Shown here piece after piece: positions 1 to 13,477 of a stretch of DNA of 64,000 nucleotides. Numbering within the stretch: the stretch's first letter is position 1; every line of letters starts with the position of its first letter. A model generated the notes under the pieces. That model searched no databases, had not been told where the DNA came from, and saw nothing but the letters and a program-made list of their open reading frames with translations. This DNA comes from Alcanivorax limicola (GTDB taxonomy: Bacteria > Pseudomonadota > Gammaproteobacteria > Pseudomonadales > Alcanivoracaceae): assembly GCF_019931215.1 (NCBI RefSeq), contig NZ_JAIOUB010000002.1, positions 806,001-870,000 on the forward strand. The letters run 5' to 3'. The translations under genes were made by a program, and so were the position numbers.

Positions 1-254
1 CAGTGGCGTTTGCACCGGACCTGATGATTCTTGATGTGATGATGCCGGGCATGGACGGCCCGAGCACGTTGCGCGCATTGCGCGCGATGCCGGAAATGGC
101 CGGCGTGCCTGCTATCTTTATGACGGCCAAGGTGCAGCCTGAGGAGGTCAAGCAACTGTTGGCACTGGGGGCACTGGAAGTGATTCCCAAACCCTTCGAC
201 CCGATGACCCTGGCGCAGCGGGTGATGACGGTGTGGGAGCGGCGTGATTCGTAA
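1..254 (+). CDS. Response regulator receiver domain, 5'-truncated by window edge
   Basis: Only the C-terminal two thirds of a CheY-like receiver domain lies in the window; the frame is already open at base 3 and the true start is upstream. The phospho-acceptor Asp sits in ILDVMMPG (residue 11 of the visible part), followed by the conserved Thr of MTAK and the Lys of PKPF. The protein stops right after the receiver fold, so it has no output domain. It lies 33 bp upstream of a second receiver-only protein and is probably in the same operon, acting as a phosphorelay intermediate or a protein-protein switch. The family is certain; its partner kinase is outside the window. Confidence 0.85.
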   Translation, partial: VAFAPDLMILDVMMPGMDGPSTLRALRAMPEMAGVPAIFMTAKVQPEEVKQLLALGALEVIPKPFDPMTLAQRVMTVWERRDS

Positions 255-287: not shown

Positions 288-671
288 TTGACGGCAGGAC
301 AGATTTTACTGGTTGAGGATGATCCTCTGGTGGGCGAACTGCTGGATTATCTCCTCAAACGGGAAGGTTTTGGTGTGTTGTGGGCTCGGGATGGCCGGGC
401 GGCACAGCGCGCCATCGCAGAGAGTGACGGTTTTATTGCGGCAATTCTTGATGTGATGCTGCCGTATGTCGACGGCTATTCGCTGGTGGAGCAGTTGCGG
501 GAGCATACCGCGCTCAGTGACATTCCAGTGCTGATGCTGACAGCTCGGGCGCAAGAGCAGGACGTGGTGAGAGCCCTTGAGCTGGGTGCCGATGATTACC
601 TGGTAAAACCGTTCCAGCCCGGCGAGCTCACGGCCCGTTTGCGTCGCCTGATACGCAGGCGGCCGCGATGA
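288..671 (+). CDS. Stand-alone response regulator (REC domain only)
   Basis: A 127-residue CheY-like protein: acidic pair D11-D12, phospho-acceptor D55 in ILDVMLP, T85 and K107 (LVKPF) are all present, so it should be phosphorylatable. There is no DNA-binding or enzymatic output domain. The TTG start at 288 is chosen because GGGAGA lies 8 nt upstream and because it gives the normal receiver N terminus. Its stop overlaps the start of the next gene by 4 nt, tying it to the TPR/beta-barrel, HEAT-repeat and glycosyltransferase genes. It may control the polymer-synthesis machinery by direct binding (inference). Confidence 0.88.
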   Translation: MTAGQILLVEDDPLVGELLDYLLKREGFGVLWARDGRAAQRAIAESDGFIAAILDVMLPYVDGYSLVEQLREHTALSDIPVLMLTARAQEQDVVRALELGADDYLVKPFQPGELTARLRRLIRRRPR

Positions 672-1906
672 TACGCCCTCTGATACTCGCGCTGATGCTC
701 GTCGCCACATTCCCCGCACAGGCCTGGGAGGCGGAAGTGCGGCGGTCATTGGAGAACCATGATATTCCCCGCGCCCAGGCGCAAGTCGATGCCGTGTTGC
801 GAGCGTTGCCCCAAGACAGGGCTGCGCTGCTATGGCAAGCACGGCTGAATGCCATGAGCGGTAATCATGCGCTGGCCCGGCAACAGTTCGATGACCTGCT
901 CCGTCTGGACCCGAACAACGTCGATGTCCGCTTCGCCTCTGCCCAGCAATATGCCTGGCAGGGTGATGTGCCCCGGGCCATTCAGGAGGCAGAAAACGCC
1001 CGCACGCTGGCGCCGGATTACGCGGCGGTATGGGCGTTTGAATTGCAGCTTGCCATGACGCACGCACGCTCCGCCGATGACCCTGACGCGGCCGCCGCTT
1101 ATCGGCGCCGCCATCTCGAAGCTCAGGCTGCCGTGCCGGACGTCGCCGCCCAGTATCCGGCAGAGCCGATGCAACCGTTCAGCTGGCGCGGCCGGCGCAT
1201 GCTGGAGATCGGCTATGACGAGGATTATCTCAGCAACGGGCTGAGTGACTGGCGCGGGGCGGATGTGGCGCTGCAGTGGCAGGATTCCCGGGACCGTCTC
1301 TGGTATAGCCGTTTGCGCAATACTTCCCGGTTCGATCAGACAGACAATGAGTATAACGCTGGCGTCTACGTGCCCATGGGAAACCGGCGCCAGCTTCAGC
1401 TGGATGCAACCTACAGCCCCACGGCGCGCATTCGCCCGGAGTGGTCGGCCTATGCGGGCTTTTACCTGATGCCCCGGGATCGCTGGGGGCTTCAGCCGGG
1501 CATCCGCCGCACCCACTATGACGAGAGCGATTCCACGACAGCGAGTCTTCTGGTGGAGCATTACCGGGCGTCCTGGCGCTACGCCTACACCTTCTTTCTC
1601 ACGCAACTGGATGGCGGCGGCAGCGGCGCTGCGCATGTTGTGGACTTGCGCCGTTATTACCGCGACCTCAGCCATGTTGGTGTTGGCCTCGGCGTCGGTC
1701 GGGACATTGAATCCACGCCGCTGGGGCAGCAGATCACCGACGTGCTGGGCGTGTCGGTATTTGGTGAGCACTTTCTTGATAACAGCTGGCTCGATAACAG
1801 CTGGCTCGGCCCCGACTGGAGCGTCACCTGGCGTATAGCCTTTACTGAACAAGGGGATGCTTATGACCGCATTGGCTGGCGGCTGGGTCTCCGCTATCGC
1901 TTCTGA
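668..1906 (+). CDS. YaiO-type outer-membrane beta-barrel protein with N-terminal TPR region
   Basis: 412 residues. A cleavable signal peptide (residues 1-19, ending AQA) is followed by TPR-like helices (about 25-155) and then a C-terminal region rich in alternating aromatic strands that ends in Phe (LGLRYRF), typical of an outer-membrane barrel. The TPR plus barrel layout resembles PgaA and BcsC, the outer-membrane exporters of synthase-dependent polysaccharides. It is translationally coupled to the receiver gene upstream (ATGA overlap) and overlaps the HEAT-repeat gene downstream by 44 nt. A perfect 15-bp tandem duplication (1778-1807) repeats DNSWL near the C terminus. The exact substrate is unknown; an export role is inferred from architecture and neighbours. 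Confidence 0.8.
   Translation: MIRPLILALMLVATFPAQAWEAEVRRSLENHDIPRAQAQVDAVLRALPQDRAALLWQARLNAMSGNHALARQQFDDLLRLDPNNVDVRFASAQQYAWQGDVPRAIQEAENARTLAPDYAAVWAFELQLAMTHARSADDPDAAAAYRRRHLEAQAAVPDVAAQYPAEPMQPFSWRGRRMLEIGYDEDYLSNGLSDWRGADVALQWQDSRDRLWYSRLRNTSRFDQTDNEYNAGVYVPMGNRRQLQLDATYSPTARIRPEWSAYAGFYLMPRDRWGLQPGIRRTHYDESDSTTASLLVEHYRASWRYAYTFFLTQLDGGGSGAAHVVDLRRYYRDLSHVGVGLGVGRDIESTPLGQQITDVLGVSVFGEHFLDNSWLDNSWLGPDWSVTWRIAFTEQGDAYDRIGWRLGLRYRF
1778..1807 (+). repeat. Perfect 15-bp tandem duplication inside the YaiO-type gene
   Basis: Two adjacent copies of a 15-bp unit starting GATAACAGCTGG, at 1778-1792 and 1793-1807. The unit length is a multiple of three, so the reading frame is kept and the pentapeptide DNSWL is doubled. 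Confidence 0.95.
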
Positions 1907-2960
1907 TCCAGCGTTGCTGGCGGTGGTACTGCTGGCGCTGGGGTTGCTGCTGACAACCACGCTGATGCTGCTGGGCACGCTATTGCTCAGCCGCCATCAC
2001 GAACGGCGAGCCCGTCGCGCCGCTCGGGTGCGCCAGCAGTGGATGCCACGGCTGCTGGGTATGCTGACCGGCGCTGACGATGACCCGGAGACCACACTGC
2101 CCCGGCTGGCGCGCCGCGATATGCCAGCACTGGTGAGCCTGTGTAATGCGCTTCAGGACACCGTGCGCGGCGTATCCCGCGAGTCTCTGCAGCTTCTGGC
2201 TCAGCGCCTGGGGCTGATCCCTGAATTGCGTAGCTGGTTGCGCCGCGGTGATGCGGGGCGGCAACTGGATGCCTTGACCTGCCTCGGCCAGCTGCGCATT
2301 GATGCGGCCTGGCCAGACATTCAATCCCTGATGGATCAGGACAATACCGTGCTCAGCCTGACCGCTGCCCGCGCGCTGGTGAATATCGATGCGCCGCGGG
2401 GCGTACCGGAAATCCTGCAGCGGCTGCAGCGAGCTGACTGGTCAGAAAGCCGCGTCACGGCACTGCTCAAGGAAGTCCCGGCGAATACATTGATCCGCAT
2501 GCTGCAGCAAAATCTGCTGACCAGTGAAGCGCGTGCCATGTCGGCCCCGGCGCTGCGTAAACTGATTCGCATCACCAACAGTCTGCAACCTCATCAGGTC
2601 GAGCCCCTTCTGCAGCTGGCACGGGAGCGATTCCCTGATGATGCAGAGCTGCGCAGCACCATTTGCGCCTGCGCCGACGGGCCGCAGTGGTTGGCTTATC
2701 TGCGCACCGCGACCACAGACGAATACTGGCCTGTGCGTGTGCAGGCGGTGCGTCGACTGGGGCGCATTGGCGAACCGGCCGACCGCATTGTGCTGGCGGC
2801 ACGACTCGAAGATCCGGTCTGGTGGGTCAGATATCGGGCAGCGCAGGCGCTGCTTGGTCTGCCCGACGCACAGAGGCAGGCGCTGCAGATCATGGCGCGC
2901 GTCCATGACAGCCAACGTGTGCGAGAGATACTCGCGCATGCGCTGGCGGAGGTGCGCTGA
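1863..2960 (+). CDS. Membrane-anchored HEAT-repeat protein
   Basis: About 365 residues. One strong N-terminal membrane helix (roughly residues 15-43, very Leu-rich) is followed by an Arg-rich cytoplasmic edge and then repeated helical pairs with HEAT/PBS-lyase character, clearest near the C terminus (WPVRVQAVRRLGRIGEPAD, then WWVRYRAAQALLGL). HEAT arrays are scaffolds, so this is probably an inner-membrane adaptor. The start at 1863 is preferred over 1857 because AAGGGG (1851-1856) would abut the 1857 ATG but is 6 nt from 1863. The gene overlaps its upstream neighbour by 44 nt and the glycosyltransferase by 1 nt, so the three products are probably made together. No enzymatic motif is seen. 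Confidence 0.8.
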   Translation: MTALAGGWVSAIASDPALLAVVLLALGLLLTTTLMLLGTLLLSRHHERRARRAARVRQQWMPRLLGMLTGADDDPETTLPRLARRDMPALVSLCNALQDTVRGVSRESLQLLAQRLGLIPELRSWLRRGDAGRQLDALTCLGQLRIDAAWPDIQSLMDQDNTVLSLTAARALVNIDAPRGVPEILQRLQRADWSESRVTALLKEVPANTLIRMLQQNLLTSEARAMSAPALRKLIRITNSLQPHQVEPLLQLARERFPDDAELRSTICACADGPQWLAYLRTATTDEYWPVRVQAVRRLGRIGEPADRIVLAARLEDPVWWVRYRAAQALLGLPDAQRQALQIMARVHDSQRVREILAHALAEVR

Positions 2961-4396
2961 TGGAATGGCTGACAACGCTGATGGCGGCAATACCCGGCGA
3001 CCGCATTCTGGTCTGGGCGCAATGGTTCTTCCTCGGGTACTTTATTGCCCTCGCCCTTGGTTACCTGTCACTGAACGTGCTCGCCATGTTCGCCATTGGC
3101 AAACATACCCGCGCAGCACGCACCGAATATCTGCCCCGCGCCTATCACGCTTTTCTGCCGCCGGTGTCGGTGCTTGTGCCCGCCTATAACGAAGAGGCCA
3201 ATATCACGTCCTCGGTACAGGCAATGCTGCAGCTGGCCTACCCCGAGCACGAAGTCATCGTCATCAATGACGGCTCAAAGGACAACACACTGGCTGTGCT
3301 GACCAGAGATTTCGATCTGTACCCGGTACCAGAAAGCACAGATGAAGCGTTGGCCACGCAAAAAGTGCGGGCAGTCTATCGTTCCCGCTCACAGCCTTTG
3401 CTCCGGGTCGTGGACAAGGAAAACGGCGGCAAAGCTGATGCCCTCAACGCCGGCATCAACTACAGCCGCTTTCCGTTGTTCTGCGGCGTGGATGCTGATT
3501 CCATCATTCAGCGCGACAGCCTGCTGCGCATTGTCCGTATGTTCGTGGATGACCCGGATACCATCGCCGCCGGCGGCACCGTTCGCATTGCCAATGGCAG
3601 CGAAGTGGATGCCGGCAATCTGGTGGAAGCGCGCCTGCCGCGCCGCTGGCTGCCACTGATGCAGATCGTCGAATACCTGCGCGCCTTCATGTTTGGTCGC
3701 CTGGGTTGGGAGCCCCTCAATGCACTGCTGATCATCAGCGGCGCCTTCGGCGTTTTCCGCAAGAACGTCGTGGTGGAGGTTGGCGGCTATCGACATAAAT
3801 CCATCGGCGAGGACATGGAACTGGTGGTGCGCTTGCACCGATACATGCGCCTGGCCCGTCGCCGTTACCGTATCCATTTTTTGCCGGACCCGGTGTGCTG
3901 GACCGAAGCACCGGAAGATCTGGCGACGCTGCGCTCGCAACGCATTCGCTGGCAGCGCGGCTTGCTGGAGAGTCTGTCCGCCAACGCGCGACTGTGCTGC
4001 CATCGGCGCGGCGGTGTGGTGGGCTGGGTGGCATTCCCCTTCATGCTGATTTTCGAAGCCATTGGCCCGCTACTGGAAATCGGCGGCTATATCTTCGTGC
4101 TGGTCATGGCTCTCACCGGCGCCGTCAGCCCCATCTGGGTGATGGCCTTCATGCTGGTGGCCATCGGCCTGGGGATTCTGATTTCGGTGCTGGCACTGCT
4201 GCTGGAGGAAATGTCATTCCGCATCTATCCCGGCAAGCGTTCCATCATGAAACTGTTTCTCGCCGCACTGGCCGAAAACCTGGGCTACCGCCAGCTCAAC
4301 ACCTGGTGGCGCGTGCGCGGCACCTGGCAATGGCTGCGCGGCAAGCAGGCCAAATGGGGCGAGATGAAACGCAGCGGCAGCCTGAGCAAACGCTAG
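2960..4396 (+). CDS. Processive-type family 2 glycosyltransferase, inner membrane
   Basis: 478 residues. A membrane helix (about 17-45) leads into a GT-A domain with the family-2 set: PAYNEE (74-79), D104 (INDGS), the metal-binding DAD (178-180), the general-base ED (284-285) and QRIRW (327-331, QxxRW). At least two C-terminal membrane helices follow (about 350-420). This D, DxD, D, QxxRW pattern is that of processive synthases such as cellulose, hyaluronan and poly-N-acetylglucosamine synthases. There is no PilZ domain. It is the last gene of the receiver/TPR-barrel/HEAT cluster. Polymer synthesis coupled to secretion is the likely job; the sugar cannot be told from sequence. Confidence 0.88.
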   Translation: MEWLTTLMAAIPGDRILVWAQWFFLGYFIALALGYLSLNVLAMFAIGKHTRAARTEYLPRAYHAFLPPVSVLVPAYNEEANITSSVQAMLQLAYPEHEVIVINDGSKDNTLAVLTRDFDLYPVPESTDEALATQKVRAVYRSRSQPLLRVVDKENGGKADALNAGINYSRFPLFCGVDADSIIQRDSLLRIVRMFVDDPDTIAAGGTVRIANGSEVDAGNLVEARLPRRWLPLMQIVEYLRAFMFGRLGWEPLNALLIISGAFGVFRKNVVVEVGGYRHKSIGEDMELVVRLHRYMRLARRRYRIHFLPDPVCWTEAPEDLATLRSQRIRWQRGLLESLSANARLCCHRRGGVVGWVAFPFMLIFEAIGPLLEIGGYIFVLVMALTGAVSPIWVMAFMLVAIGLGILISVLALLLEEMSFRIYPGKRSIMKLFLAALAENLGYRQLNTWWRVRGTWQWLRGKQAKWGEMKRSGSLSKR

Positions 4397-4414: not shown

Positions 4415-5401
4415 TCAGCGCGAAGCGGTCAACTCGAAGGAACGCAGTCGCGCCGAATGGTCATAAATGTCCGACACGATCATCAATTCATCCGCCTCCG
4501 TTTCGGCAGCCAGTGCATCAATACCAGCGTGCACCGCCTCCGGCGTGCCAATGATGGAGCGCGCCAGCATCTGACTGATCTGCATCTTTTCCCGGGGTGA
4601 CCAGTACTGATCGATATCGTCGATGGGCGGCTGGCTTAACAGACGCGTGCCGCGCAGCAAGTGCGTGAACGACATCTGTTGCGTGGTGGCGAGCCGGCGC
4701 GCCTCCCTGTCTGACTCTGCCGCAATCACATTGACGCCGACGATGGCGTAAGGCGCCGATAACTGCGCCGAGGGTTTGAAACGGCTGCGATAAACCGCCA
4801 GCGCATCCATCAACTGCTGCGGCGCAAAATGCGAGGCGAAGGCGTAGGGCAGGCCAAACTCGGCGGCCAGCGCGGCGCCGAAGGTGCTGGAGCCGAGAAT
4901 CCACAACGGCACCTGCGTGCCCGCGCCCGGCACCGCCTGAATGGCTTGCCCGGGTTGCGTCGGCCCCAGCAATGCCTGCAGCGCCTGCACATCCTCCGGA
5001 AAACGATCCGACGCGGCCGGCGTACGGCGCAGCGCATGCAACGTATTCTGATCCGTGCCCGGCGCCCGCCCCAACCCCAGATCAATCCGGTCCGGATACA
5101 GATGCGCCAGCGTGCCGAACTGCTCCGCAATCACCAGCGGCGAATGATTGGGCAGCATGATGCCGCCCGCACCGACACGAATATGCCGGGTGCCCGCCGC
5201 CACATGACTGATCACCAGCGACGTCGCCGCGCTGGCGATACTCTCCATATTGTGGTGCTCGGCCACCCAGAAACGCTGGTAGCCCCACGCCTCGGCATGA
5301 GCCGCCAGATCCCGGGCATTGTCCAGCGCCTGGCGCACGCTGCCACCTTCTGTGACGCGGACCAGATCGAGGATGGAGAGGCGAGGGGACAGGTCAGGCA
5401 T
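4415..5401 (-). CDS. LLM-class flavin-dependent oxidoreductase (YhbW-like)
   Basis: 328 residues, bacterial-luciferase-like TIM barrel. The N terminus ([14 protein letters not shown]), the AEHHN motif around residue 50, [20 protein letters not shown] and [11 protein letters not shown] are hallmarks of the YhbW/alkanal-monooxygenase-like group that uses reduced FMN. Met at 5401 is chosen over a Met at 5431 because it aligns with the usual family start and has GGAG 7 nt upstream. The gene converges with the glycosyltransferase at its 3' side and follows the Fic gene on the same strand at 76 bp. The substrate is unknown, as for most of this family. Confidence 0.87.
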
Positions 5402-5477
5402 GGGGTGGCTCCGGTGATTGAGGCTTGCCATTGAAACACGCCTTGCCGTGTGTCAGACAGCTTCGCGCCCGTCATCG

Positions 5478-6527
5478 TCAACGCAAGTCGTACCACACTC
5501 CGCGGCCGCGGCCATGCTGGGCCAGCGTGCCGCGTTCAACCAGTGACCGGAAATGCTGCTTCAGCGTATTGCGGCTGGCCCCGGTCAGCCTGATGGCCTC
5601 GCCGATGGTGACGCGCCCGTGCTCACGGGCGAACTCGACGATCTGGAGCTGCAGCTCCGGCATGGCGGCCAGCACGATCTTCTCGCGCTCGACCTTCTTC
5701 TCCAGCCGCCGAACCTGCTCAGCCAGCGAGCTCAGGAAGAACGTCAGCCACGGCTGCCAGTCGGGTGCCTCGGTACGGATCGTGCCTTGCGTCTGACGTA
5801 GCGCCAGGTAATACGCCTCTTTGCTTTGCTCGATCACGCTTTCCAACGAGCTGTATGGCACGTAGGCGTAGCCTGCCTGCAGGAGCATCAGCGTGGTCAG
5901 CACACGGGAAAGGCGCCCGTTCCCGTCCTGGAAGGGGTGGATCTCCAGGAACACGACGACGCACAGGGCGATGATCAGCAACGGATGCAGGCGGTCCATC
6001 TCACGTTCCTGGTTCACCCAGGCCACCAGCTCGGCCATCAGGCGGGGAGTGTCAAAGGGCGACGCGGTCTGAAACACGACGTCGATCTGTGCGCCGTTTT
6101 CATCGAAGGCAGCGACGCTGTTCGAGTTGGTTTTGTAGTGGCCGCGATGCCAGGTGTCCTTGTCGCTGTAGCGGAGCAGGATCTGATGCAGCTGCTTGAT
6201 ATGGTTTTCGGTGAAGGGGATCTCCTGCCAGGACGTGGGCACCAGATCCATCAGCTCTGCGTAGCCAGCCACTTCCTGCTCATCGCGGGTGGCGAAGGAT
6301 TTGATCTCCAGATTGGACAAGAGCTGTGCCACCTCCCGGTCGGACAGCTTGCTGCCCTCTATACGGGTGGAGGAGCCGATACTCTCGATGGTGGCTACCC
6401 GTCGCAGCGCCGATAGCCGGTCAGGCGCGAGCGAGCCCAAAGCGCGCCAGGCGCCTTTGAACTCGTCGATCCTGGCGATGAGGTTCAGGATCTGTGAGGT
6501 GATCTGAAGAGTGTCGGTTTTCAGCAT
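5478..6527 (-). CDS. Fic-domain AMP-transferase with N-terminal inhibitory motif
   Basis: 349 residues. The catalytic Fic loop HPFQDGNGR (197-205) is intact, with the catalytic His197 and the ATP-binding Asn203/Arg205, so it should transfer AMP (or another nucleotide) to a target hydroxyl. The helix carrying S53-TRI-E57-G58 fits the (S/T)xxxE(G/N) inhibitory motif; in this class it lies N-terminal in the same chain, so no separate antitoxin is needed. The C-terminal 70 residues form a winged-helix region (EHGRVTIGEAIRLTGASRNTLKQHF), common in this group. It is a single gene with no partner. Target unknown. Confidence 0.9.
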   Translation of the reverse strand: MLKTDTLQITSQILNLIARIDEFKGAWRALGSLAPDRLSALRRVATIESIGSSTRIEGSKLSDREVAQLLSNLEIKSFATRDEQEVAGYAELMDLVPTSWQEIPFTENHIKQLHQILLRYSDKDTWHRGHYKTNSNSVAAFDENGAQIDVVFQTASPFDTPRLMAELVAWVNQEREMDRLHPLLIIALCVVVFLEIHPFQDGNGRLSRVLTTLMLLQAGYAYVPYSSLESVIEQSKEAYYLALRQTQGTIRTEAPDWQPWLTFFLSSLAEQVRRLEKKVEREKIVLAAMPELQLQIVEFAREHGRVTIGEAIRLTGASRNTLKQHFRSLVERGTLAQHGRGRGVWYDLR

Positions 6528-6674
6528 AAATCGTAGGTTACACCGCTTTTAACCAATTCAACGCCCATTTACACCCAATTAAGGATTGCGCCTATTGAGG
6601 CACCCATTTGCATCCAGTTCGCTGTGGCTTTCAGGATGGGGCCAGCCAGGCAAAAAAAGGCCAGGCACAAAAAA

Positions 6675-6698
6675 GCCGTCTTGCGACGGCCTTTTTGT
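6675..6698 (-). terminator. Bidirectional hairpin terminator of ssrA
   Basis: The stem GCCGTC/GACGGC (6675-6680 with 6685-6690) has a four-base loop and is flanked by six A on the left and five T on the right, so it can stop transcription from either side. It lies just past the 3' end of the tmRNA on the minus strand. Confidence 0.85.
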
Positions 6699-6704
6699 TT
6701 GGTT

Positions 6705-7062
6705 TGGTGGAGCCGGCGGGAATCGAACCCGCGTCCGTCAGCAATCCACCTGCAGGTCTACATGCTTATCCCAGTTTATTGATTTGAGTGACTGCAGCCC
6801 AACGGGCAGGACGCAGACACCGAGCCCCTAAAGGTTTTAACAGCGCAATCCGGGGCGGACGTTGCTGCGATCCCGTGTAGCTATGCCGGTCGCGCTTCCC
6901 CACGGGCTGGGTCGCTTGACCGTTGGCAGGCCTTAGGCCGCCAGTGCGTAAGTATCGTCGTTTGCGATTACTTTAGTTTGTCACTAAGGATTTACGAGAA
7001 TCGTGACCTTCTCGGCATGCACCACAGGGTTCATAACCGGCGTCGAAACCTTGTCGGCCCCT
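6705..7062 (-). ncRNA. ssrA: Transfer-messenger RNA (tmRNA)
   Basis: A one-piece tmRNA of about 358 nt. On the minus strand the 5' end GGGGCCG pairs with the 3' CGGCTCC, followed by A and an encoded CCA (6705-6707); the T arm GGGTTCGATTCCC is intact. The tag reading frame is at 6965-6933 and reads ANDDTYALAA before TAA, with GCA as resume codon. The ending LAA is the usual signal for ClpXP/ClpAP, and FtsH (also encoded here) can take part. It rescues stalled ribosomes together with SmpB, encoded 0.6 kb away on the same strand. Confidence 0.96.
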
Positions 7063-7072
7063 GTATCCGTGA

Positions 7073-7078
7073 TTGTAC
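7073..7078 (-). promoter_or_regulatory. Probable -10 box of ssrA
   Basis: TACAAT on the minus strand ends 10 nt before the mature 5' end of tmRNA, leaving room for a short leader removed by RNase P. No convincing -35 hexamer was recognised at 16-18 bp. Confidence 0.5.
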
Positions 7079-7355
7079 AGGAGTTCGGGGCGGAGAGTGC
7101 GAGTTTCAAGGGCTATTTCGCACTGTCTTGGCAGGAGAATGAGACCATGTCAGCACGCAATGTAAACTTTCTTTCATTCCTGTAGGACAATCCAACCCAA
7201 AAGGCGTGACAAATGCCGATTCTGTTAGATGATACCTTTGGTAACACGGCAGGTAACGAATGCCGTAACAGACAGCTGCAATGAGCGGCTGTCCCTGAAG
7301 GCTCCCCCCAGAGGAGAGGCTTCTGGAAATAGCCCTCATAGAGAGAGGTATCGAG

Positions 7356-7616
7356 ATGAAAGCGTTGAATAGTGTTGAGCAACTCATGAATCGCTGGCCG
7401 CTGCTGGGCCGGACACTGGTGCTGATGGTCGCTCTGGTGGCCTACGCGGCGGGTCTGCTGGCCGTAGACGTTGCTACAGGGGATGCCCGGATGCCGGTAG
7501 TGCTGCTGGCGGTGTTCTTCCTGCCTGCGGTGCTGCGGGCCTGGTTGCTGGTCTACTGGCAGGTGCGTGACGACCTGCGCGGTCGCTTCAGCAACCGCCA
7601 TCACAGCGGCGTCTGA
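7356..7616 (+). CDS. Small membrane protein of unknown function
   Basis: 86 residues with two hydrophobic segments (about 20-37 and 47-65, the second VVLLAVFFLPAVLRAWLLVYW) and a basic C terminus. GAGAGAGG lies about 7 nt before the ATG, supporting translation. Base composition and codon use match the core genome. It stands alone between ssrA and smpB, pointing away from ssrA. I do not recognise the family. The 293 bases before it hold only the ssrA upstream region and a small inverted repeat near 7240-7265. Confidence 0.55.
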   Translation: MKALNSVEQLMNRWPLLGRTLVLMVALVAYAAGLLAVDVATGDARMPVVLLAVFFLPAVLRAWLLVYWQVRDDLRGRFSNRHHSGV

Positions 7617-7653
7617 ATCAGCGGTCTGTGACCCTGTCAGTATGAGAGAAGAA

Positions 7654-7677
7654 AGCCCGCGCCGCCCGGCGCGGGCT
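7654..7677. terminator. Hairpin between the small membrane gene and smpB
   Basis: An 11-bp perfect GC-rich stem (7654-7664 with 7667-7677, core GCCCGCGCC) separates two convergent genes. On the minus strand it is followed by TTTCTTCTC, so it should chiefly terminate smpB; it touches the smpB stop codon. Confidence 0.75.
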
Positions 7678-8150
7678 TAGCGTTGCCGCATGATGCGCTG
7701 TTTCTGGCGGTTCCAGTCCCGTTCTTTTTCCGTGGCGCGCTTGTCGAACTTCTGTTTGCCTTTCGCCAGGGCGATATCCAGCTTGGCCCGGCCGTGGCTC
7801 CAGTAAAGACTCAGCGGCACACAGGTAAAACCTTCCTTCTGTACCCCACCAAAGATCCGCCCCAGTTCGCGCTGATGCAGCAACAGCTTGCGCAGCCGCA
7901 TGGGGTCGGGGTTGATGTGGGTGCTGGCGGTGTTCAGTGGTTCGATGCGGCAGCCGAACAGGAACGCCTCCCCGCCCCGAAGCATGATGTAGGCTTCAGA
8001 CAGGTTACAGCGACCGGCGCGCAGCGCTTTCACTTCCCAACCTTCCAGTACCAGGCCAGCTTCGAAGCGGTCGTCGATGTGATATTCGTGGCGCGCCTTG
8101 CGGTTGGCTGCAATGGTGGCGGTGCCCGATTTGCTTTTCGGTTTCGTCAT
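7677..8150 (-). CDS. smpB: SsrA-binding protein SmpB
   Basis: 157 residues, the normal length. The OB-fold core is clear: [33 protein letters not shown] and the basic C-terminal tail ([28 protein letters not shown]) that enters the empty ribosomal A site and mRNA channel. It binds tmRNA and delivers it with EF-Tu to stalled ribosomes. The longer reading frame upstream of 8150 has no family similarity; Met at 8150 gives the canonical start. No Shine-Dalgarno is visible; a TATAAT is only 9 nt upstream (see the promoter entry). Confidence 0.96.
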
Positions 8151-8159
8151 GGGGGCGGG

Positions 8160-8165
8160 ATTATA
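8160..8165 (-). promoter_or_regulatory. Candidate smpB -10 box very close to the start codon
   Basis: A perfect TATAAT on the minus strand, separated from the smpB ATG by nine bases (CCCGCCCCC). If used, transcription would start within two or three bases of the ATG and the message would be nearly leaderless. No strong -35 is seen upstream. Confidence 0.5.
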
Positions 8166-8383
8166 GCGTGATAGCAGCGGAAAAGATTGTGTTGCGACCT
8201 GCAACACCGCGCGAACACGGATGGTGGGGGCTTTGTGCGGCAACATCAAGGCCGTGCCGGGGCTGTGCCGGGTTATGCCGTGGGCAATCAGCGCCTGAAT
8301 GATGTTCATCCGGGTTGAGCAGGCCATGCAAAGTCCGCAAAATGGCCGCTTCATAGACGGGGCTCCACCAACAGGTATTGCGC

Positions 8384-9865
8384 ATGAATCAGCAAAACAA
8401 ACCGATACACGGCGTCTGGGCCAGCCGCTGGGTCTTTATTCTTGCTGCCACGGGGTCGGCCATCGGGCTGGGCAATATCTGGAAGTTTCCGTACATGGCC
8501 GGGGAAAACGGCGGCGCAGCCTTTGTGCTGGTCTACCTGGTGTGTATCGCGCTGATCGGTGTGCCGATCATGATGGCCGAGGTCATGCTGGGGCGGCGCG
8601 GTGGCATGAGCCCGATCAACAGCATGGGCAGGCTGGCCCGGGATGCGGGCGTCAGCCAGCGCTGGAAAGCGGTGGGCGGGCTGGGCGCGGTGGCCGGTTT
8701 CTTCCTGCTGTCCCTGTACACCGTGATTGCCGGCTGGGCCCTGTTCTATATCTGGGAAATGGCCTCCGGGGCGCTGCGCGGTGCGGGCGCTGAGGAGGTC
8801 ACGGCAGTATACGAGGGCCTGCAGGCTAATGTCTGGCTGGTGCTCGGGTGCCACACGGTGTTCATGGCCATGACCATGTTCGTGGTGGCGCGGGGCGTCA
8901 ACAAGGGCCTGGAAGTGGCGGTGCGCATCCTGATGCCGCTGTTGTTCCTGTTGCTGCTGGGCCTGCTGGGCTACTCCTTCACCAGCGAAGGCTTCATGCC
9001 GGCGGTGCATTTCCTGTTCGCGTTTGATGCCTCGGCCTTCACCGTGAAAGCCGCGCTGCTGGCCATGGGGCATGCCTTCTTTACGCTGAGCCTGGGTCTT
9101 GGCGCGATCATGGCCTACGGTGCCTATATGCCGCGCGAGGTGACGGATCGCAAGACCGGCAAGCGCAAGCCGGTGTCCATCGCCTCCACGGTCTTCACCA
9201 TCGCAGCGCTCGACACGCTGGTGGCGCTGGTCGCGGGGCTGGTGATCTTCCCGGTGGTGTTTGCCAATGCGCTGGAGCCCGGTGAAGGCCCGCGCTTGTT
9301 GTTTGTGACCTTGCCGCTGGCGTTTGCCAGCATTCCCTTCGGCATGATGCTGGGCACGGTGTTCTTCGTGCTGCTCACCTGCGCAGCCTGGACATCGTCC
9401 ATCTCGCTGGGCGAACCGCTGGTGGCCTGGCTGGTGGAGAAGGGCTGGAACCGCATCAAGGCGGCGGTGGTGATCGGCGGGTCGGCCTGGCTGCTGGGCA
9501 TCGGCACGGTGCTGTCGTTCAATTACTGGAGTGAGGTGACCTTCCTCGGGCGCACCTTCTTCGGCAATCTGGAATTTCTGACCATCAACATCATGCTGCC
9601 GTTGGGCGGCCTGCTGATTGCCATCTTTGCCGGCTGGGTCATGAAAGAAACCCATGCCCGCAAAGAGCTGGCCATGCAGAGCTTCGGGCTTTATATGGTG
9701 TGGCGGGCCATGGTGCGGGTGTTTGCGCCGTTGGCGGTGATCGCCATCTTCATCTTCGTGGCCCTGGTGCCGGACGGCGATGACGCCGATGAGGCAGAGG
9801 CGGATGTCCCTGTCGTCGAGACAGTCGTTGAGCCCACAGGCCTGCCGGAGACCACCGATGAGTGA
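8384..9865 (+). CDS. Sodium-dependent transporter, NSS (SNF) family
   Basis: 493 residues with about 11-12 membrane helices, the LeuT-like fold. The first helix [29 protein letters not shown] is the family signature holding the two sodium sites and the unwound substrate-binding region. It imports an amino acid or related small solute with Na+; the substrate is not evident. Met at 8384 is chosen (ACAGG about 8 nt upstream) over a TTG two codons earlier. The last 25 residues are acidic. The next gene, rnfH, starts 8 nt before its stop. The position between smpB and rnfH is normally held by ratA in related bacteria. Confidence 0.9.
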
Positions 9866-10160
9866 GCCGCTGATTACGGTGGAAGTGACCTATGCGCTGC
9901 CGAACAAGCAGCGCCTGATCAGTCTTCGGGTGCCGGTGGGTACCACGGTATTTGATGCCGCGCGGCAATCCGGTATCGGCGATGAGTTCGAAGGGCTGGA
10001 TCTGGAGCGGGCCACGCTGGGCATCTTCGGCAAGGTTGAGCCCAATCCGCGGCAACGCGCGCTGCAAGAGGGTGATCGGGTGGAGATTTACCGGCCTTTG
10101 ACTGCAGACCCGAAAGAGACGCGCAAGGCGCGGGCCAAAAAGTCACCACGTCAGGGCTGA
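9858..10160 (+). CDS. rnfH: RnfH/RatB family ubiquitin-like protein
   Basis: 100 residues: ITVEVTYALPNKQRLISLRVPVGTTVFDAARQSGI, then LGIFGKV and GDRVEIYRPLTADPKETRKAR, which are diagnostic of the beta-grasp RnfH (UPF0125) family. Its biochemical role is unclear; it usually sits with ratA, bamE and smpB, as here. The ATG lies inside the end of the transporter gene (ATGAGTGA overlap), implying translational coupling. The basic tail KARAKKSPRQG is typical. Confidence 0.9.
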   Translation: MSEPLITVEVTYALPNKQRLISLRVPVGTTVFDAARQSGIGDEFEGLDLERATLGIFGKVEPNPRQRALQEGDRVEIYRPLTADPKETRKARAKKSPRQG

Positions 10161-10167
10161 CGCAGCA

Positions 10168-10197
10168 GATGGCCGCCGCCTTGTAGCGTCGGCCATC
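10168..10197. terminator. Weak hairpin between convergent rnfH and bamE
   Basis: GATGGCCG (10168-10175) pairs with CGGCCATC (10190-10197) across a 14-nt loop. There is no U tract on either side, so termination here is only a suggestion. Confidence 0.4.
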
Positions 10198-10209
10198 ATA
10201 CGGGTGGCA

Positions 10210-10683
10210 TCACATGGGTGGCACGCCGGGGTCCGTGGGTACGGGGCCGGGGCCGGGAACCTGCTGTGGTGCGGTCTCGGCTTCGCGCTCCTGATCCCGC
10301 AGCTGCTGTTCCAGGTCGCGATCCTGCTGGCCTGTAACCTTACTGCGAAAATCGTCAATTACGTCGCCTTCGTGGCGGCTGTAGACGCCATTGTCGAAAT
10401 AAACCACGATGCGCTGCTGTACTTTCTCGCCCTGGCCGGGCTGGTACACCATCGGATAGAACCAGGTATCGGGCGTAAACGGGTCAATCAGCGTAGGCTG
10501 GCCGAGTACGTAACGCACCTGATCTTCCGTCATGCCGGGCTCAAGCTCTGCGAGCATGTCCTCGGTCACGAAGTTGCCCTGGGGAATATCGATACGATAA
10601 ACGCCGGGAAAACGCAGGTTGCTGCAACCGGTGACCAGCAGGGTCAGGGTCGCCAGGGCAATGATCAGAGCTTTATATGGCAT
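10210..10683 (-). CDS. bamE: Outer-membrane assembly lipoprotein BamE (OmlA/SmpA)
   Basis: 157 residues. A lipoprotein signal ends in LVTGC (Cys20), then NLRFPGVYRIDIPQGNFVTEDMLAELEPGMTEDQVRYVLGQPTLIDPF is the BamE core, followed by WFYPM. It is the small stabilising subunit of the BAM complex that inserts beta-barrels. The C-terminal 45 residues are a Gln/Glu/Pro-rich extension beyond the usual domain. Met at 10683 gives a 20-residue signal peptide; a second Met at 10701 is possible. The gene is divergent from fur with overlapping promoters and convergent with rnfH. Confidence 0.95.
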   Translation of the reverse strand: MPYKALIIALATLTLLVTGCSNLRFPGVYRIDIPQGNFVTEDMLAELEPGMTEDQVRYVLGQPTLIDPFTPDTWFYPMVYQPGQGEKVQQRIVVYFDNGVYSRHEGDVIDDFRSKVTGQQDRDLEQQLRDQEREAETAPQQVPGPGPVPTDPGVPPM

Positions 10684-10689
10684 GATTTT

Positions 10690-10740
10690 TTGATTTCGCA
10701 TAAGTTCGGGCGATAATACAGACTTGATTCGGGGACACAA
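10690..10740. promoter_or_regulatory. Divergent overlapping promoters of bamE and fur
   Basis: On the + strand TTGATT (10690-10695) and GATAAT (10712-10717), 16 bp apart, point to fur. On the - strand TTGTGT (10740-10735) and TATTAT (10718-10713), 16 bp apart, point to bamE. The two -10 elements overlap almost completely, so the two genes should compete for polymerase. No clear 19-bp Fur box was recognised. Confidence 0.55.
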
Positions 10741-10766
10741 GGTTCCTGCCGTACGCAAGGAGATAC

Positions 10767-11174
10767 ATGTTGGACAATCACGACCTGCGCAAGGCCGGCC
10801 TCAAGGTCACGCTGCCACGAGTAAAGATTCTGCAGCAGCTGGAAGCCTCGGAAGAGCGGCACATGAGCGCCGAGGATATCTACAAGGCGCTGATGGAAGC
10901 GGGTGAAGACGTGGGCCTGGCGACAGTCTATCGCGTACTGACCCAGTTCGAGCAGGCCGGCATCGTCATGCGGCACAACTTCGAGGGCGGCTCTGCGGTG
11001 TTCGAGCTGGCGGATGAAGGCCACCACGATCATATGGTGTGTCTGGAGACGGGCCAGGTGGTCGAGTTCCTGGACCCCGAAATCGAAAAACGCCAGAAGC
11101 TGATTGCCGACGAGCATGGCTTCGAGCTGATGGACCACTCACTGGTGCTCTACGTCAAACCGAAAAAGAAATAA
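10767..11174 (+). CDS. fur: Ferric uptake regulator Fur
   Basis: 135 residues. The winged-helix half (LRKAGLKVTLPRVKILQQLEAS...ATVYRVLTQFEQAGIV) and the metal-binding dimer half (HHDHMVCLETGQVVEF, then HGFELMDHSLVLYVKP) are complete. Only one Cys is in the HHDHxxC motif, as in Pseudomonas Fur, so the second structural zinc Cys of the E. coli protein is absent. With Fe(II) it represses iron-uptake genes; a likely target is the TonB receptor operon at 47-50 kb. AAGGAG precedes the ATG by 4 nt. bamE-fur-recN adjacency is the standard Pseudomonas-type order. Confidence 0.97.
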   Translation: MLDNHDLRKAGLKVTLPRVKILQQLEASEERHMSAEDIYKALMEAGEDVGLATVYRVLTQFEQAGIVMRHNFEGGSAVFELADEGHHDHMVCLETGQVVEFLDPEIEKRQKLIADEHGFELMDHSLVLYVKPKKK

Positions 11175-11198
11175 CCCGCCCAAAGCCCGCTCAAAAAA

Positions 11199-11230
11199 AG
11201 CGCCCCGGCAGAGCGATCTGCCGGGGCGCT
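11199..11230. terminator. Strong bidirectional terminator between fur and recN
   Basis: A perfect 14-bp stem (11199-11212 with 11217-11230, core GCGCCCCGGCAGA) with GCGA loop. A run of seven A lies on its left side, giving a U tract for recN on the minus strand. Confidence 0.88.
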
Positions 11231-11248
11231 GCTGTTTCAGGGGTTCGT

Positions 11249-12913
11249 TCAGGCCTGGGCTTTCTCCAGCATCTCCCGGGCATGCGCCAGGGTCGAATCC
11301 GTCATCTCCACCCCGCCCAGCATGCGCGCCAGCTCACTGGTGCGGTCGTCATGGGCGAGCGTGGCAATCCGGGTCTGGGTATTCTTCCTGTTCTGCTTCT
11401 TGTGCACATGCCAGTGCTGGTGGCCCAGCGCGGCGACCTGGGGCTGATGGGTAATACACAGCACCTGGGCATGGCTGCCCAGCTCCCGCAGCAACCGGCC
11501 GACGATCTCGGCAACGCCGCCACCGACGCCCACATCCACCTCATCAAACACCAGGCAGGGCACGGTCAGCACCCGGGCGCAGATTACCTGAATCGCCAGG
11601 CTGACCCGCGACAGCTCACCACCGGACGCCACTTTGGCCAGCGGCCGCAGCGGTTGACCGGTATTGGCGGTAAACAGGAATTCGACAATCTCATTGCCAT
11701 CAGCACCGGGATCGCAGGGCGTCAGCATGACTTCCAGTCGCGCGCCGCGCATGCCCAGCGCCTTGAGATGGCTGACCACGCCGCTGGCCAGTTCCGGCCC
11801 CTTGCTGCGGCGCTTGTCACTGAGCAGGCGCGCCGCGCTCTCGTATTCGGTGCGCGCGGCTGTTTCGGCGGCCTCCAGGCCAGCCAGATGATCGTCGTAA
11901 TGTGCCAGCGTATGCGCTTCCTCGCGCAACTGCTGATGCCGCTGATACAACTCCTCCGGCCGCACCCGGTGCTTGCGCGCCAGGGTATAAACCTGGCTGA
12001 GACGCTCCTCGACCTGTGCCAGGCGTTCCGGGTCTATATCCAGCCGATCCAGATAATGACGCAGATCATCGGCGGCGGCTTCCACCTGCAGCCGGGCCGA
12101 TTCCACACTGCCCAGCACGCCAGCAAGAGTGCCGTCCTCATGGCTGGCATCACCCAGCCAGCTCAGCGCCTGCCCCAGCTGATCATTGACGGTGCCCTCG
12201 TCATGGTCGAACAGCAGCGACAGGCTCTGCTGGCACAGACGAATCAGATCTTCGGCACTGCCCAGGCGTTTCTGCTCGGTTTCCAGTGTCGCCAGTTCGT
12301 TGTCTTGCAGCGCAAGCGCGTCCAGCTCTTCCAGTTGAAAACGCAGCAACTCCTCGCGCTCATGCTGTTCCCGCGACTGGCTCAGCGCCGCTTCGTGGGC
12401 GCGCCGCGCCGCCTGCCAACTGCGCCAGTGCTGACGTACCGCGCTGGCAGCCTCACCGGCACTGGCAAAGCTGTCGAGCAAATCCCGGTGCGCATCGCGC
12501 CGCAACAGCGCCTGATGTTCATGCTGGCTGTGCACGCTGATCAGCATTTCGCCCAGCGCACGCACTTCCTGCAGGGGCATGGGGCTGCCATTGATCCAGG
12601 CGCGGGAGCGGCCATCCGGGCGCACGGTGCGCCGCAGCATGCAGTCGTCGCCATCATCCAGCTCACGCTCCGCCAGCCAGGCTCGGGCTGCGGGGTTGTG
12701 CCGGATATCAAAGGTGGCCTGCACTTCGGCGCGATCGCTGTCTGGCCGCACCACAGCACTGTCGGCGCGCTCGCCCAGCGCCAGCCCCAGCGCATCAATA
12801 ATCACCGACTTGCCGGCGCCGGTTTCGCCGGTAATCACGGTCAGACCGGCCCCGGGTTCCAGCTCGAGGCTGTCGACGGTGGCGAAATTGAGCACATTAA
12901 GATGGGTAAGCAT
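11249..12913 (-). CDS. recN: DNA repair protein RecN
   Basis: 554-555 residues, full length. An SMC-like ATPase: Walker A GETGAGKS (29-36), long central coiled coil (about 150-370), signature SGGELSR and Walker B CLVFDEVDVGVGGGVAE near the C terminus. It helps recombinational repair of double-strand breaks. Met at 12913 is chosen because AAGGGG is 7 nt upstream and MLTHLNVLNFATVDSLELE is the conserved N terminus; the open frame extends upstream but only into repeat sequence. No LexA box was recognised upstream. Confidence 0.97.
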   Translation of the reverse strand: MLTHLNVLNFATVDSLELEPGAGLTVITGETGAGKSVIIDALGLALGERADSAVVRPDSDRAEVQATFDIRHNPAARAWLAERELDDGDDCMLRRTVRPDGRSRAWINGSPMPLQEVRALGEMLISVHSQHEHQALLRRDAHRDLLDSFASAGEAASAVRQHWRSWQAARRAHEAALSQSREQHEREELLRFQLEELDALALQDNELATLETEQKRLGSAEDLIRLCQQSLSLLFDHDEGTVNDQLGQALSWLGDASHEDGTLAGVLGSVESARLQVEAAADDLRHYLDRLDIDPERLAQVEERLSQVYTLARKHRVRPEELYQRHQQLREEAHTLAHYDDHLAGLEAAETAARTEYESAARLLSDKRRSKGPELASGVVSHLKALGMRGARLEVMLTPCDPGADGNEIVEFLFTANTGQPLRPLAKVASGGELSRVSLAIQVICARVLTVPCLVFDEVDVGVGGGVAEIVGRLLRELGSHAQVLCITHQPQVAALGHQHWHVHKKQNRKNTQTRIATLAHDDRTSELARMLGGVEMTDSTLAHAREMLEKAQA

Positions 12914-13061
12914 TGGCAGCCCCTTGCAATAGCGAACACTGTCCGTAAGAGCAGTAGATGCAATAGTAGGCAATTCCGCGTCGCTTGATAAGCCCCCCTT
13001 GATTAACCGCTCTACCGGCGCTCCTTGCGGTGTTGCATGCGGGTCACCCTCCATCGAGTAC

Positions 13062-13172
13062 GCGTTGAGCCGGGGTATGCCCTTCCGGGACCGCTCAAGC
13101 CATCCCTGGGCGCTCGCGCTTTGGCCATCCATGGCCAAAGAGGTCCCTCCACGGCATACCCCGGCTCAACGC
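13062..13172. repeat. 111-bp element with perfect 20-bp terminal inverted repeats
   Basis: The outer arms (13062-13081 and 13153-13172) are perfect 20-bp inverted repeats with core GAGCCGGGGTATGCC. Inside, GGGACC (13087-13092) pairs with GGTCCC (13142-13147), and CTTTGGCCAT (13119-13128) pairs with ATGGCCAAAG (13131-13140). As RNA or single-stranded DNA the element would fold into one long, nearly continuous cruciform. It has no coding capacity; it resembles small miniature intergenic repeat elements. Confidence 0.85.
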
Positions 13173-13252
13173 TGGCAGTAGATTCAACGCAAGGTGGTTA
13201 TGGCGACTTTCTGGAGGAACAAAACCGTCAGTTGGCTTCCAGCTTGTCGACC

Positions 13253-13324
13253 GTTTTCAGGACTGTTTGAGGCAGGATGCCGAAACCAAGCCCCCAGGGA
13301 TGGGTTTACGGCGTGTCCTGAAAA
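13253..13324. repeat. 72-bp inverted-repeat element
   Basis: GTTTTCAGGAC (13253-13263) and GTCCTGAAAAC (13314-13324) are perfect 11-bp inverted repeats. The interior holds a second complementary pair (AAACC near 13283 and GGTTT near 13303). It is distinct in sequence from the neighbouring 111-bp element. Probably a dispersed intergenic repeat; copy number cannot be judged from one window. Confidence 0.7.
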
Positions 13325-13477
13325 CCTTTCCCGCCCCCCGAGGGCCATAACCACCAAACCAACAAAGAATGGCGCAGACCAGGACCGGCCACCACGAGGT
13401 ACCACTTTCGGCCTTCATGTCATCCAGATGACGGAACCAGTTCATAACCAGCGCCCGGCAGCGGTATGATAGCGCCC

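What the first reader, a model, noticed from the sequence alone, without database searches (positions are those of the whole stretch)
288..4396. Compact synthase-dependent polysaccharide locus driven by receiver-only regulators
A receiver-only protein, a TPR plus outer-membrane barrel, a membrane HEAT-repeat scaffold and a processive-type GT2 synthase are overlapping genes. Known systems (Pga, Bcs) pair a synthase with a TPR/barrel exporter and use PilZ/c-di-GMP control; here there is no PilZ, no deacetylase, and two stand-alone receivers plus a HEAT protein take that position. It may be a distinct polymer secretion type controlled by phosphorylation.
Basis: partly seen in the sequence, partly recalled or inferred. 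Interest (0 to 1): 0.55.

Follow-up and report, generated by a model that had tools for sequence, protein, structure and literature searches.

The report
Receiver-linked HEAT and glycosyltransferase polysaccharide locus
This stretch of DNA looks like a small machine that makes a sugar polymer and passes it out of the cell; unlike the well-known versions, its control part seems to be a phosphate-switch protein and a helical-repeat protein, and the same set recurs in very different bacteria and in archaea.

Summary
The genes are real and overlap in one operon: receiver, TPR+YaiO barrel, membrane HEAT protein, GT2. The window cuts the operon: a second receiver and a 1248-aa histidine kinase lie just upstream. 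A GT2-seeded scan gave 80 loci in 17 named phyla. Of 70 with 2.3 kb upstream, 70 hold the HEAT family, 67 directly upstream of or fused to the GT2; 59 hold a receiver nearby, against 20 of 125 control windows. Of 22 other PgaC-model loci none had either within 1.5 kb. The barrel is in 14/16 Pseudomonadota and 11/13 Bacteroidota, in 0/18 Bacillota, but also 0/8 in five other phyla recalled as having outer membranes. Its model has 14 strands and resembles BcsC, PelBC and OmpG. A natural HEAT-GT2 fusion folds confidently; its GT2 half resembles PcManGT, hyaluronan and cellulose synthases. Best reading: an exopolysaccharide synthase switched by a phosphorylated receiver through HEAT. Receiver binding, polymer and translocation are inferred; a short-glycan or glycolipid enzyme is the main rival. 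Searches of the held library found no description.

The parts
1..254 (+). REC1, second stand-alone receiver, 3' part (whole gene begins outside the window at L002:9868; 128 aa)
   Evidence: Pfam Response_reg 2.6e-16 on the window part; whole ORF; lies in an 11-row starred set of non-adjacent receivers
288..671 (+). REC2, stand-alone receiver next to the synthesis genes; acid pair (E10, D11), D55, T85 and K107 present
   Evidence: Response_reg 3.1e-27; its 14 best hits among 164 receiver domains are all module-adjacent ones; 12-row starred set of adjacent receivers only
668..1906 (+). YaiO-type outer-membrane protein: signal-like N-terminus (by eye), helical TPR part (about residues 16-161), 14-stranded barrel (residues 177-411)
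   Evidence: TIGR04390 122.6 bits; AF2 model pLDDT 91.9, pTM 0.69; Foldseek hits BcsC, PelBC, OmpG, 4y25
1857..2960 (+). HEAT protein: one N-terminal hydrophobic segment (residues 8-46) followed by an arginine-rich stretch, so the HEAT solenoid is probably cytoplasmic (by eye)
   Evidence: HEAT_2 3.7e-13; hydropathy; same family in 70 of 70 related loci with enough upstream sequence
2960..4396 (+). GT2 with DAD (residues 178-180), GED (283-285) and QRIRW (327-331); about three transmembrane segments; no PilZ
   Evidence: Pfam Glyco_tranf_2_3 2.6e-25; PgaC model 143 bits, below its cut-off 422; motifs invariant or nearly so in a 10-row alignment; hydropathy

Best explanation
A synthase-dependent exopolysaccharide operon whose conserved regulatory input is phosphorylation of a receiver. 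Proposed path: (1) the dCache/PAS kinase upstream phosphorylates REC2, with REC1 as second target or phosphate sink (inferred); (2) REC2~P docks on the membrane-anchored HEAT solenoid (inferred); (3) the HEAT protein, which works as one unit with the GT2 (supported by natural fusions and a fused model), switches the GT2 on (inferred); (4) the GT2 extends a glycan from nucleotide sugars (fold and motifs shown, product unknown) and passes it across the inner membrane (inferred); (5) where an outer membrane and the barrel gene are present, the TPR/YaiO barrel takes it out (model shown, export inferred).
For: Operon anatomy and overlaps. GT2-seeded scan: HEAT in 70 of 70 loci with at least 2.3 kb upstream, adjacent or fused in 67; receiver domain in 59 of 70 against 20 of 125 control 4-kb windows, which were counted on both strands. 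Within 1.5 kb: HEAT 71 of 74 and receiver 41 of 74 in module loci; HEAT and receiver 0 of 22 in other PgaC-model hits, the 23rd (L171) being itself a module member with HEAT but no receiver. HEAT-GT2 fusions: 5 of 80 loci. In the class of L115, of 22 hits with the HEAT half in 247 genomes (its own genome included) 21 lie in frames of 845-1022 aa, one of them with an internal stop, and one in a frame of 429 aa. Adjacent receivers cluster in a tree: 15 label changes, shuffled mean 48.7, 0 of 500 as low. Phosphorylation residues mostly kept: D55 in 51 of 58, K107 97%, T/S85 98%. Barrel: Pseudomonadota 14/16, Bacteroidota 11/13, Bacillota 0/18. Models: YaiO 14 strands, hits BcsC, PelBC, OmpG; HEAT-GT2 fusion pTM 0.85, GT2 half like hyaluronan synthase Z 24.8 and BcsA Z 23.7. 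Precedent: EpsW~P activates EpsZ (PMC12802240).
Against: No assay, no complex model, no product. The GT2 has about three transmembrane segments, and its best structural match by Z is PcManGT (Z 26.3, 1.5 above hyaluronan synthase), recalled as a non-processive enzyme. 11 of 70 loci have no receiver in the examined stretch, although two of the three Nitrospira among them have receivers beside a displaced HEAT gene. D55 is not Asp in 7 of 58 adjacent receivers, 6 of them Glu. The barrel (over 150 bits) is missing in 0 of 8 loci of Myxococcota, Acidobacteriota, Elusimicrobiota, Gemmatimonadota and Spirochaetota, that is, found in none of them, phyla recalled as having an outer membrane. In L040 the GT2 is on the other strand. 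The locus is patchy: 4 of 37 relatives, all in one genus. The fused model is of a distant Acholeplasmataceae MAG protein, and no PAE was available.
Confidence: 0.6

Rival explanations
1. The GT2 is not a polymer synthase: it makes a glycolipid or a short lipid-linked glycan, and HEAT and receiver regulate that.
For: About three transmembrane segments; best structural Z is PcManGT, 341 of 345 residues aligned, recalled as a 'minimal cellulose-synthase-like fold' enzyme that is not processive (paper not held); the core also occurs without the barrel in Bacillota, archaea and other phyla.
Against: DAD, GED and QRIRW motifs are conserved; hyaluronan synthase and BcsA align with the GT2 half over 393 and 389 residues; a TPR + 14-strand barrel with BcsC as top hit goes with it in most Pseudomonadota and Bacteroidota loci; NfrB, with two predicted transmembrane helices, was reported to make a secreted polysaccharide (PMC8669469, abstract and passages).
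Confidence: 0.25
2. The receivers act elsewhere, for example on motility or on transcription through another regulator, and share the operon only for co-expression.
For: Stand-alone receivers often act at a distance (general knowledge); no complex was shown here; 11 of 70 loci lack one nearby.
Against: The receiver directly upstream is a co-inherited lineage, is found near the GT2 in 13 named phyla and in 0 of 22 other synthase loci within 1.5 kb; its partner domains vary (HPt, GGDEF, ODP) while the receiver stays.
Confidence: 0.12
3. An ordinary YaiO/YaiP-like locus as in E. coli with incidental neighbours.
For: The barrel belongs to the YaiO model; E. coli yaiO and yaiP lie 1.9 kb apart, around yaiX, which IS2 interrupts.
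Against: On the GT2 family profile YaiP scores 51.8 bits and PgaC 124.8, module members 457-755; no HEAT or receiver gene is annotated in the E. coli stretch.
Confidence: 0.03

Closest known systems
NfrBA-YbcH of E. coli (PMC8669469, abstract and passages)
   Same: Inner-membrane GT2 with DxD, TED, QxxRW and few transmembrane segments, overlapping gene for a TPR + outer-membrane pore protein; no PilZ.
   Different: NfrB carries a C-terminal MshEN c-di-GMP domain; here no such hit, and a separate HEAT protein and receivers are present instead.
PgaABCD (E. coli)
   Same: PgaC is the nearest of the four E. coli GT2s compared (27% over 277 aa); TPR + barrel exporter.
   Different: No PgaB deacetylase in the locus; PgaC model 143 bits, cut-off 422; barrel of YaiO type with 14 strands.
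Bcs cellulose system
   Same: Same GT fold (Z 23.7); BcsC is the top Foldseek hit of the barrel protein.
   Different: No PilZ on the GT2, no BcsB in the operon; shorter membrane part.
EpsW/EpsZ of Myxococcus xanthus (PMC12802240, abstract and two sections)
   Same: A stand-alone receiver acts on a polysaccharide enzyme after translation.
   Different: EpsZ is a phosphoglycosyl transferase of a Wzx/Wzy pathway, not a GT2 synthase; the sections read describe no HEAT protein or YaiO barrel.
E. coli yaiO/yaiP/yaiS
   Same: YaiO barrel with a GT2 in the same stretch.
   Different: Different GT2; a putative deacetylase YaiS; no HEAT or receiver gene annotated; E. coli YaiO has 257 aa, too short for the long TPR part.
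xag / sfz clusters (PMC4643136, PMC8250860, passages)
   Same: GT2-based exopolysaccharide candidate loci.
   Different: Sfz2 is an EpsE-N + GT2 protein beside the BcsB-like Sfz1; the passages read mention no HEAT protein or stand-alone receiver in these loci.

Membership tests
YaiO barrel family (TIGR04390 / PF19413) | Score over curated cut-off | tested here: met
   122.6 bits vs 32; 68.8 vs 23.9
TPR + barrel polysaccharide exporter (BcsC/PgaA/PelB type) | TPR helices followed by an outer-membrane barrel | tested here: met
   14 strands after TPR helices; Foldseek best E-values BcsC and PelBC, OmpG TMt 0.66-0.72; the TM-scores to BcsC are low, 0.35-0.46
TPR + barrel polysaccharide exporter (BcsC/PgaA/PelB type) | Pore wide enough for a glycan | tested here: inconclusive
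   Strand number as in OmpG (recalled: 14); pore radius not measured
Processive GT2 synthases | D, DxD, ED and QxxRW motifs | tested here: met
   NDGS, DAD 178-180, GED 283-285, QRIRW 327-331 in alignment A1
Processive GT2 synthases | Own transmembrane channel for the polymer | tested here: inconclusive
   About three transmembrane segments; PcManGT Z 26.3, hyaluronan synthase Z 24.8
PgaC/IcaA (TIGR03937) | Score over curated cut-off 422.3 | tested here: not met
   143 bits
Pga system | PgaB deacetylase in the locus | tested here: not met
   No such gene among the operon's proteins; 2 deacetylase matches elsewhere in the genome
Bcs system | PilZ domain on the synthase | tested here: not met
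   No PilZ in the GT2 at E 0.1; 4 PilZ matches elsewhere in the genome
NfrBA system | MshEN domain on the GT2 | tested here: not met
   No such Pfam hit at E 0.1 in the 478-aa protein
EpsW-type receiver control | Stand-alone receiver with intact phosphorylation site beside the enzyme genes | tested here: met
   REC2 residues and conservation
EpsW-type receiver control | Phosphorylated receiver binds and activates the enzyme | not testable with these tools
   Needs a complex model or an assay
HEAT-GT2 module defined here | HEAT family protein adjacent or fused to this GT2 clade | tested here: met
   67 of 70 loci; 0 of 22 control synthase loci within 1.5 kb

The most novel reading that the evidence does not exclude
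A previously unrecognised class of glycan synthase, present across bacteria and in archaea, in which a membrane HEAT solenoid is the regulatory subunit and a phosphorylated receiver domain is the conserved switch, in place of the c-di-GMP switch of Bcs, Pga and Nfr; the outer-membrane barrel is an add-on for cells that need one.
Probability: 0.45. Interest if true: 0.75.

Novelty: new variant of a known kind. Interest (0 to 1): 0.62.

Why it matters
Known synthase-dependent exopolysaccharide systems are mostly explained through c-di-GMP. A HEAT + GT2 unit with a linked receiver, seen here in 13 named phyla, would be a second, two-component-driven way to switch such synthases on by protein contact. 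It gives a function hypothesis to many genes annotated only as 'HEAT repeat protein' or 'YaiO family', and natural HEAT-GT2 fusions make the contact directly testable. It would also extend the EpsW/EpsZ principle, reported for one enzyme type in myxobacteria, to another enzyme class.

Tried and rejected
Xag/sfz idea: followed through papers and set aside, because Sfz2 is an EpsE-N + GT2 protein beside a BcsB-like protein. Transcription-factor receiver: REC2 matches PhoB/OmpR-type models only over their receiver part and has no DNA-binding domain hit. Mixed alignment of fused and single HEAT and GT2 proteins (A6): not used, because nearly all single HEAT rows were laid on the GT2 half; a fused-only alignment (A7) was folded instead. 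1077-aa protein downstream in L079: no Pfam hit, not pursued. PcManGT paper not held. In the structural second look the HEAT half was barely tested (rows span residues 170-943), so nothing is said about its fold relatives from there.

HEAT, YaiO and receiver profiles were refined on these same loci; as a check 10 divergent HEAT proteins went to Pfam: 9 of 10 had a HEAT match at E 0.05 (2 of these 9, L101 and L103, below the curated cut-offs), the short Flavobacterium one (L112) had none. Most upstream starts were taken for ORFs. Ten of the 80 loci had under 2.3 kb upstream and were left out of the 70. The control windows were counted on both strands and may include receivers of the module's own kinase. 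The synthase control is not exhaustive: it lists no match in the window's own genome, although one search gives the window GT2 143 bits with the same model. The tree has few columns for its 166 rows and its bootstrap had not settled. Statements on the literature rest on the held open library (10 searches); subscription papers and preprints were not searched. Which phyla have an outer membrane is recalled.
Full report
WHAT IS THERE. Profiles confirm each. The operon is cut by the window edge. In the genome (window = G000:C3:806001-870000) a stretch fetched upstream (L002; L002 position 10001 = window 1) holds a 1248-aa histidine kinase at 6087-9833 and REC1 at 9868-10254. The kinase has dCache_3, PAS domains, HisKA, HATPase_c and a receiver match below the Pfam cut-off (21.7 vs 30.2 bits). 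So the order is kinase, REC1, REC2, YaiO, HEAT, GT2. Three further genomes of the genus keep these six in order; in two of them the best kinase match starts only at residue 483. Of 37 relatives searched, own genome included, 4 have the GT2, all in the same genus (4 of its 7 genomes), so the locus is patchy.

THE CORE RECURS. A first search with the HEAT protein gave matches in 30 of 274 genomes of the class at E 0.001; the weaker ones are mostly partial and may be other HEAT proteins. I fetched the 10 best foreign loci: 9 of 10 hold a relative of the GT2; the tenth (L039), a short contig that ends in the HEAT match, has receiver and YaiO. In L040 the GT2 lies on the other strand. Six-frame profile searches and counts gave, for the 70 loci with at least 2.3 kb upstream: HEAT family 70 of 70; directly upstream 62, fused 5, together 67; the other three (L043, L044, L048) are Nitrospira with the HEAT gene about 4-7 kb away, in L048 on the other strand. 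Receiver domain on the same strand within 4 kb upstream: 55 of 70; adding 3 kb downstream: 59 of 70; 4-kb control windows in the same loci, both strands: 20 of 125. YaiO at over 150 bits: 32 of 70.

CONTROL. Matches to the PgaC model at E 1e-30 in 143 genomes of the class gave 23 loci with flanks of up to 1.5 kb. One (L171) scores 516 bits on the GT2 family and has the HEAT gene, so it is a member; the other 22 have neither HEAT nor receiver, and one of them has a weak YaiO match. In the same 1.5 kb frame the module loci show HEAT 71 of 74 and receiver 41 of 74.

TAXA. The 80 loci fall in 17 named phyla (5 loci have no phylum in their record). Among loci with enough upstream sequence, HEAT adjacent or fused / receiver / YaiO: Bacillota 18, 16 and 0 of 18; Pseudomonadota 16, 15 and 14 of 16; Bacteroidota 13, 13 and 11 of 13; Nitrospirota 1, 0 and 3 of 4. 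A receiver is near the GT2 in 13 named phyla; the one archaeal locus counted has HEAT and receiver, and the second, too short to be counted, has both as well. The barrel is absent from all 22 counted loci of Bacillota, Actinomycetota, Mycoplasmatota and archaea. It is also absent, at this cut-off, from all 8 counted loci of Myxococcota, Acidobacteriota, Elusimicrobiota, Gemmatimonadota and Spirochaetota, which I recall as having an outer membrane. So a barrel goes with an outer membrane in the two best-sampled groups, but an outer membrane does not always bring this barrel. HEAT-GT2, usually with a receiver, is the shared core.

RECEIVERS. Of 164 receiver domains in the 80 loci, 58 lie directly before HEAT or YaiO. 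In these the phosphorylation residues are mostly kept: D55 51 of 58 (Glu in 6, Asn in 1), K107 97%, T/S85 98%. REC2's 14 best hits are all of this adjacent kind; REC1's 8 best are all of the other kind. In a tree the labels need 15 changes against a shuffled mean of 48.7 (0 of 500 as low); REC2 lies in a starred set of 12 adjacent rows and REC1 in a starred set of 11 other rows. The adjacent receivers are not one clean clade. Still, REC1 and REC2 belong to two separate conserved lineages, and REC2 is of the kind that travels with HEAT-GT2. The domains joined to the receiver vary: HPt, GGDEF and REC in L079; ODP, GGDEF and REC in the Acholeplasmataceae MAG L115. A GGEEF motif is kept in 3 of 34 long receiver frames (L076, L078, L079). 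c-di-GMP may thus play a part in some lineages.

FUSIONS. Five of the 80 loci encode HEAT and GT2 in one frame (L089, L091, L113, L114, L115). A search with the HEAT half in 247 genomes of the class of L115 gave hits in 22 (its own included): 21 in open frames of 845-1022 aa, one of these with an internal stop, and one in a frame of 429 aa. Seventeen of them were aligned with the five and share the GT2 motifs. Fusion of two proteins that are neighbours elsewhere is good evidence that they work as one unit.

STRUCTURES. The YaiO protein, folded with 34 relatives, gives pLDDT 91.9 and pTM 0.69: helical TPR part, then 14 strands. Foldseek's best E-values are BcsC and PelBC (TM-scores low, 0.34-0.46), followed by porins; OmpG reaches TMt 0.66-0.72, and 4y25, titled 'Bacterial polysaccharide outer membrane secretin' (recalled as PgaA), is also listed. 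The natural fusion of L115, folded with 21 relatives, gives pLDDT 87.9 and pTM 0.85; its GT2 half matches PcManGT (Z 26.3, 341 of 345 residues), hyaluronan synthase (Z 24.8, 393 of 494) and BcsA (Z 23.7). The window GT2 has one N-terminal and about two C-terminal hydrophobic segments. This is fewer than BcsA, so the route through the inner membrane is open: an oligomer, a contribution of the HEAT anchor, or no polymer at all.

WHAT IS KNOWN. Of four E. coli GT2s compared, PgaC is nearest (27% over 277 aa), then YaiP and BcsA, with NfrB hardly similar. NfrB-NfrA (abstract and passages of PMC8669469) is the best analogue in layout: GT2 with two predicted transmembrane helices, TPR + pore protein, c-di-GMP through MshEN. 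EpsW/EpsZ (abstract and two sections of PMC12802240) is the best analogue in control: a phosphorylated stand-alone receiver activates a phosphoglycosyl transferase. Searches of the held library for HEAT repeat with glycosyltransferase and exopolysaccharide, two-component, response regulator, receiver domain or YaiO: searches found no paper, three each, one. Of these five different papers I opened the HEAT passages of two, where the term refers to beta-catenin and to a type III effector; PMC7159879, PMC3174227 and PMC4884052 I saw only in listings, with titles on other subjects. Of 41 papers that name YaiO, 25 were listed; by their titles many are E. coli detection papers. I found no description of this set; subscription papers and preprints were not covered.

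VERDICT. Real, conserved and coherent: a receiver-linked HEAT-GT2 system, with an exporter-like barrel in this bacterium and many others. Shown: gene set, conservation, co-inheritance, fusions, predicted folds. Inferred: phosphotransfer, receiver docking, activation, polymer identity and translocation.

Noticed in passing
L002:6087-9833 (window -3913 to -167): A 1248-aa dCache/PAS histidine kinase heads the operon but lies outside the window; its C-terminal receiver match is under the Pfam cut-off.
   Followed up: partly
window 1778-1807: A perfect 15-base tandem duplication inside the YaiO gene (DNSWL twice), in the loop between modelled strands 12 and 13; the six relatives in alignment A3 have a gap of 10 residues there.
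   Followed up: partly
window 5478-6527 (-): Fic/DOC family protein with a C-terminal DUF977 match, next to a luciferase-like monooxygenase gene (4415-5431 -).
   Followed up: no
window 6705-7061 (-) and 7677-8354 (-): tmRNA gene (tag ANDDTYALAA) and smpB near each other; ordinary.
   Followed up: no
L034:9109-13478: In this genome the module lies tail to tail with a second, different GT2 (12234-13478 -) and a TPR-like protein (10535-12250 -).
   Followed up: no
L115:5540-7558 and L113:5783-7423: The regulator before the HEAT-GT2 fusion in L115 is an ODP (metallo-beta-lactamase-like) + GGDEF + receiver protein, suggesting a sensor built into the switch; the N-terminus of the L113 regulator looks similar by eye but was not scanned.
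   Followed up: partly
L079:10383-13616: A 1077-aa protein without any Pfam hit follows the GT2; frames of similar size follow it in L076 and L078, then a second receiver and a kinase.
   Followed up: no
L084, L087, L104, L116: Loci that lack a receiver nearby; in L084 and L116 an 801-804-aa protein follows the GT2 directly, perhaps another export arrangement.
   Followed up: no
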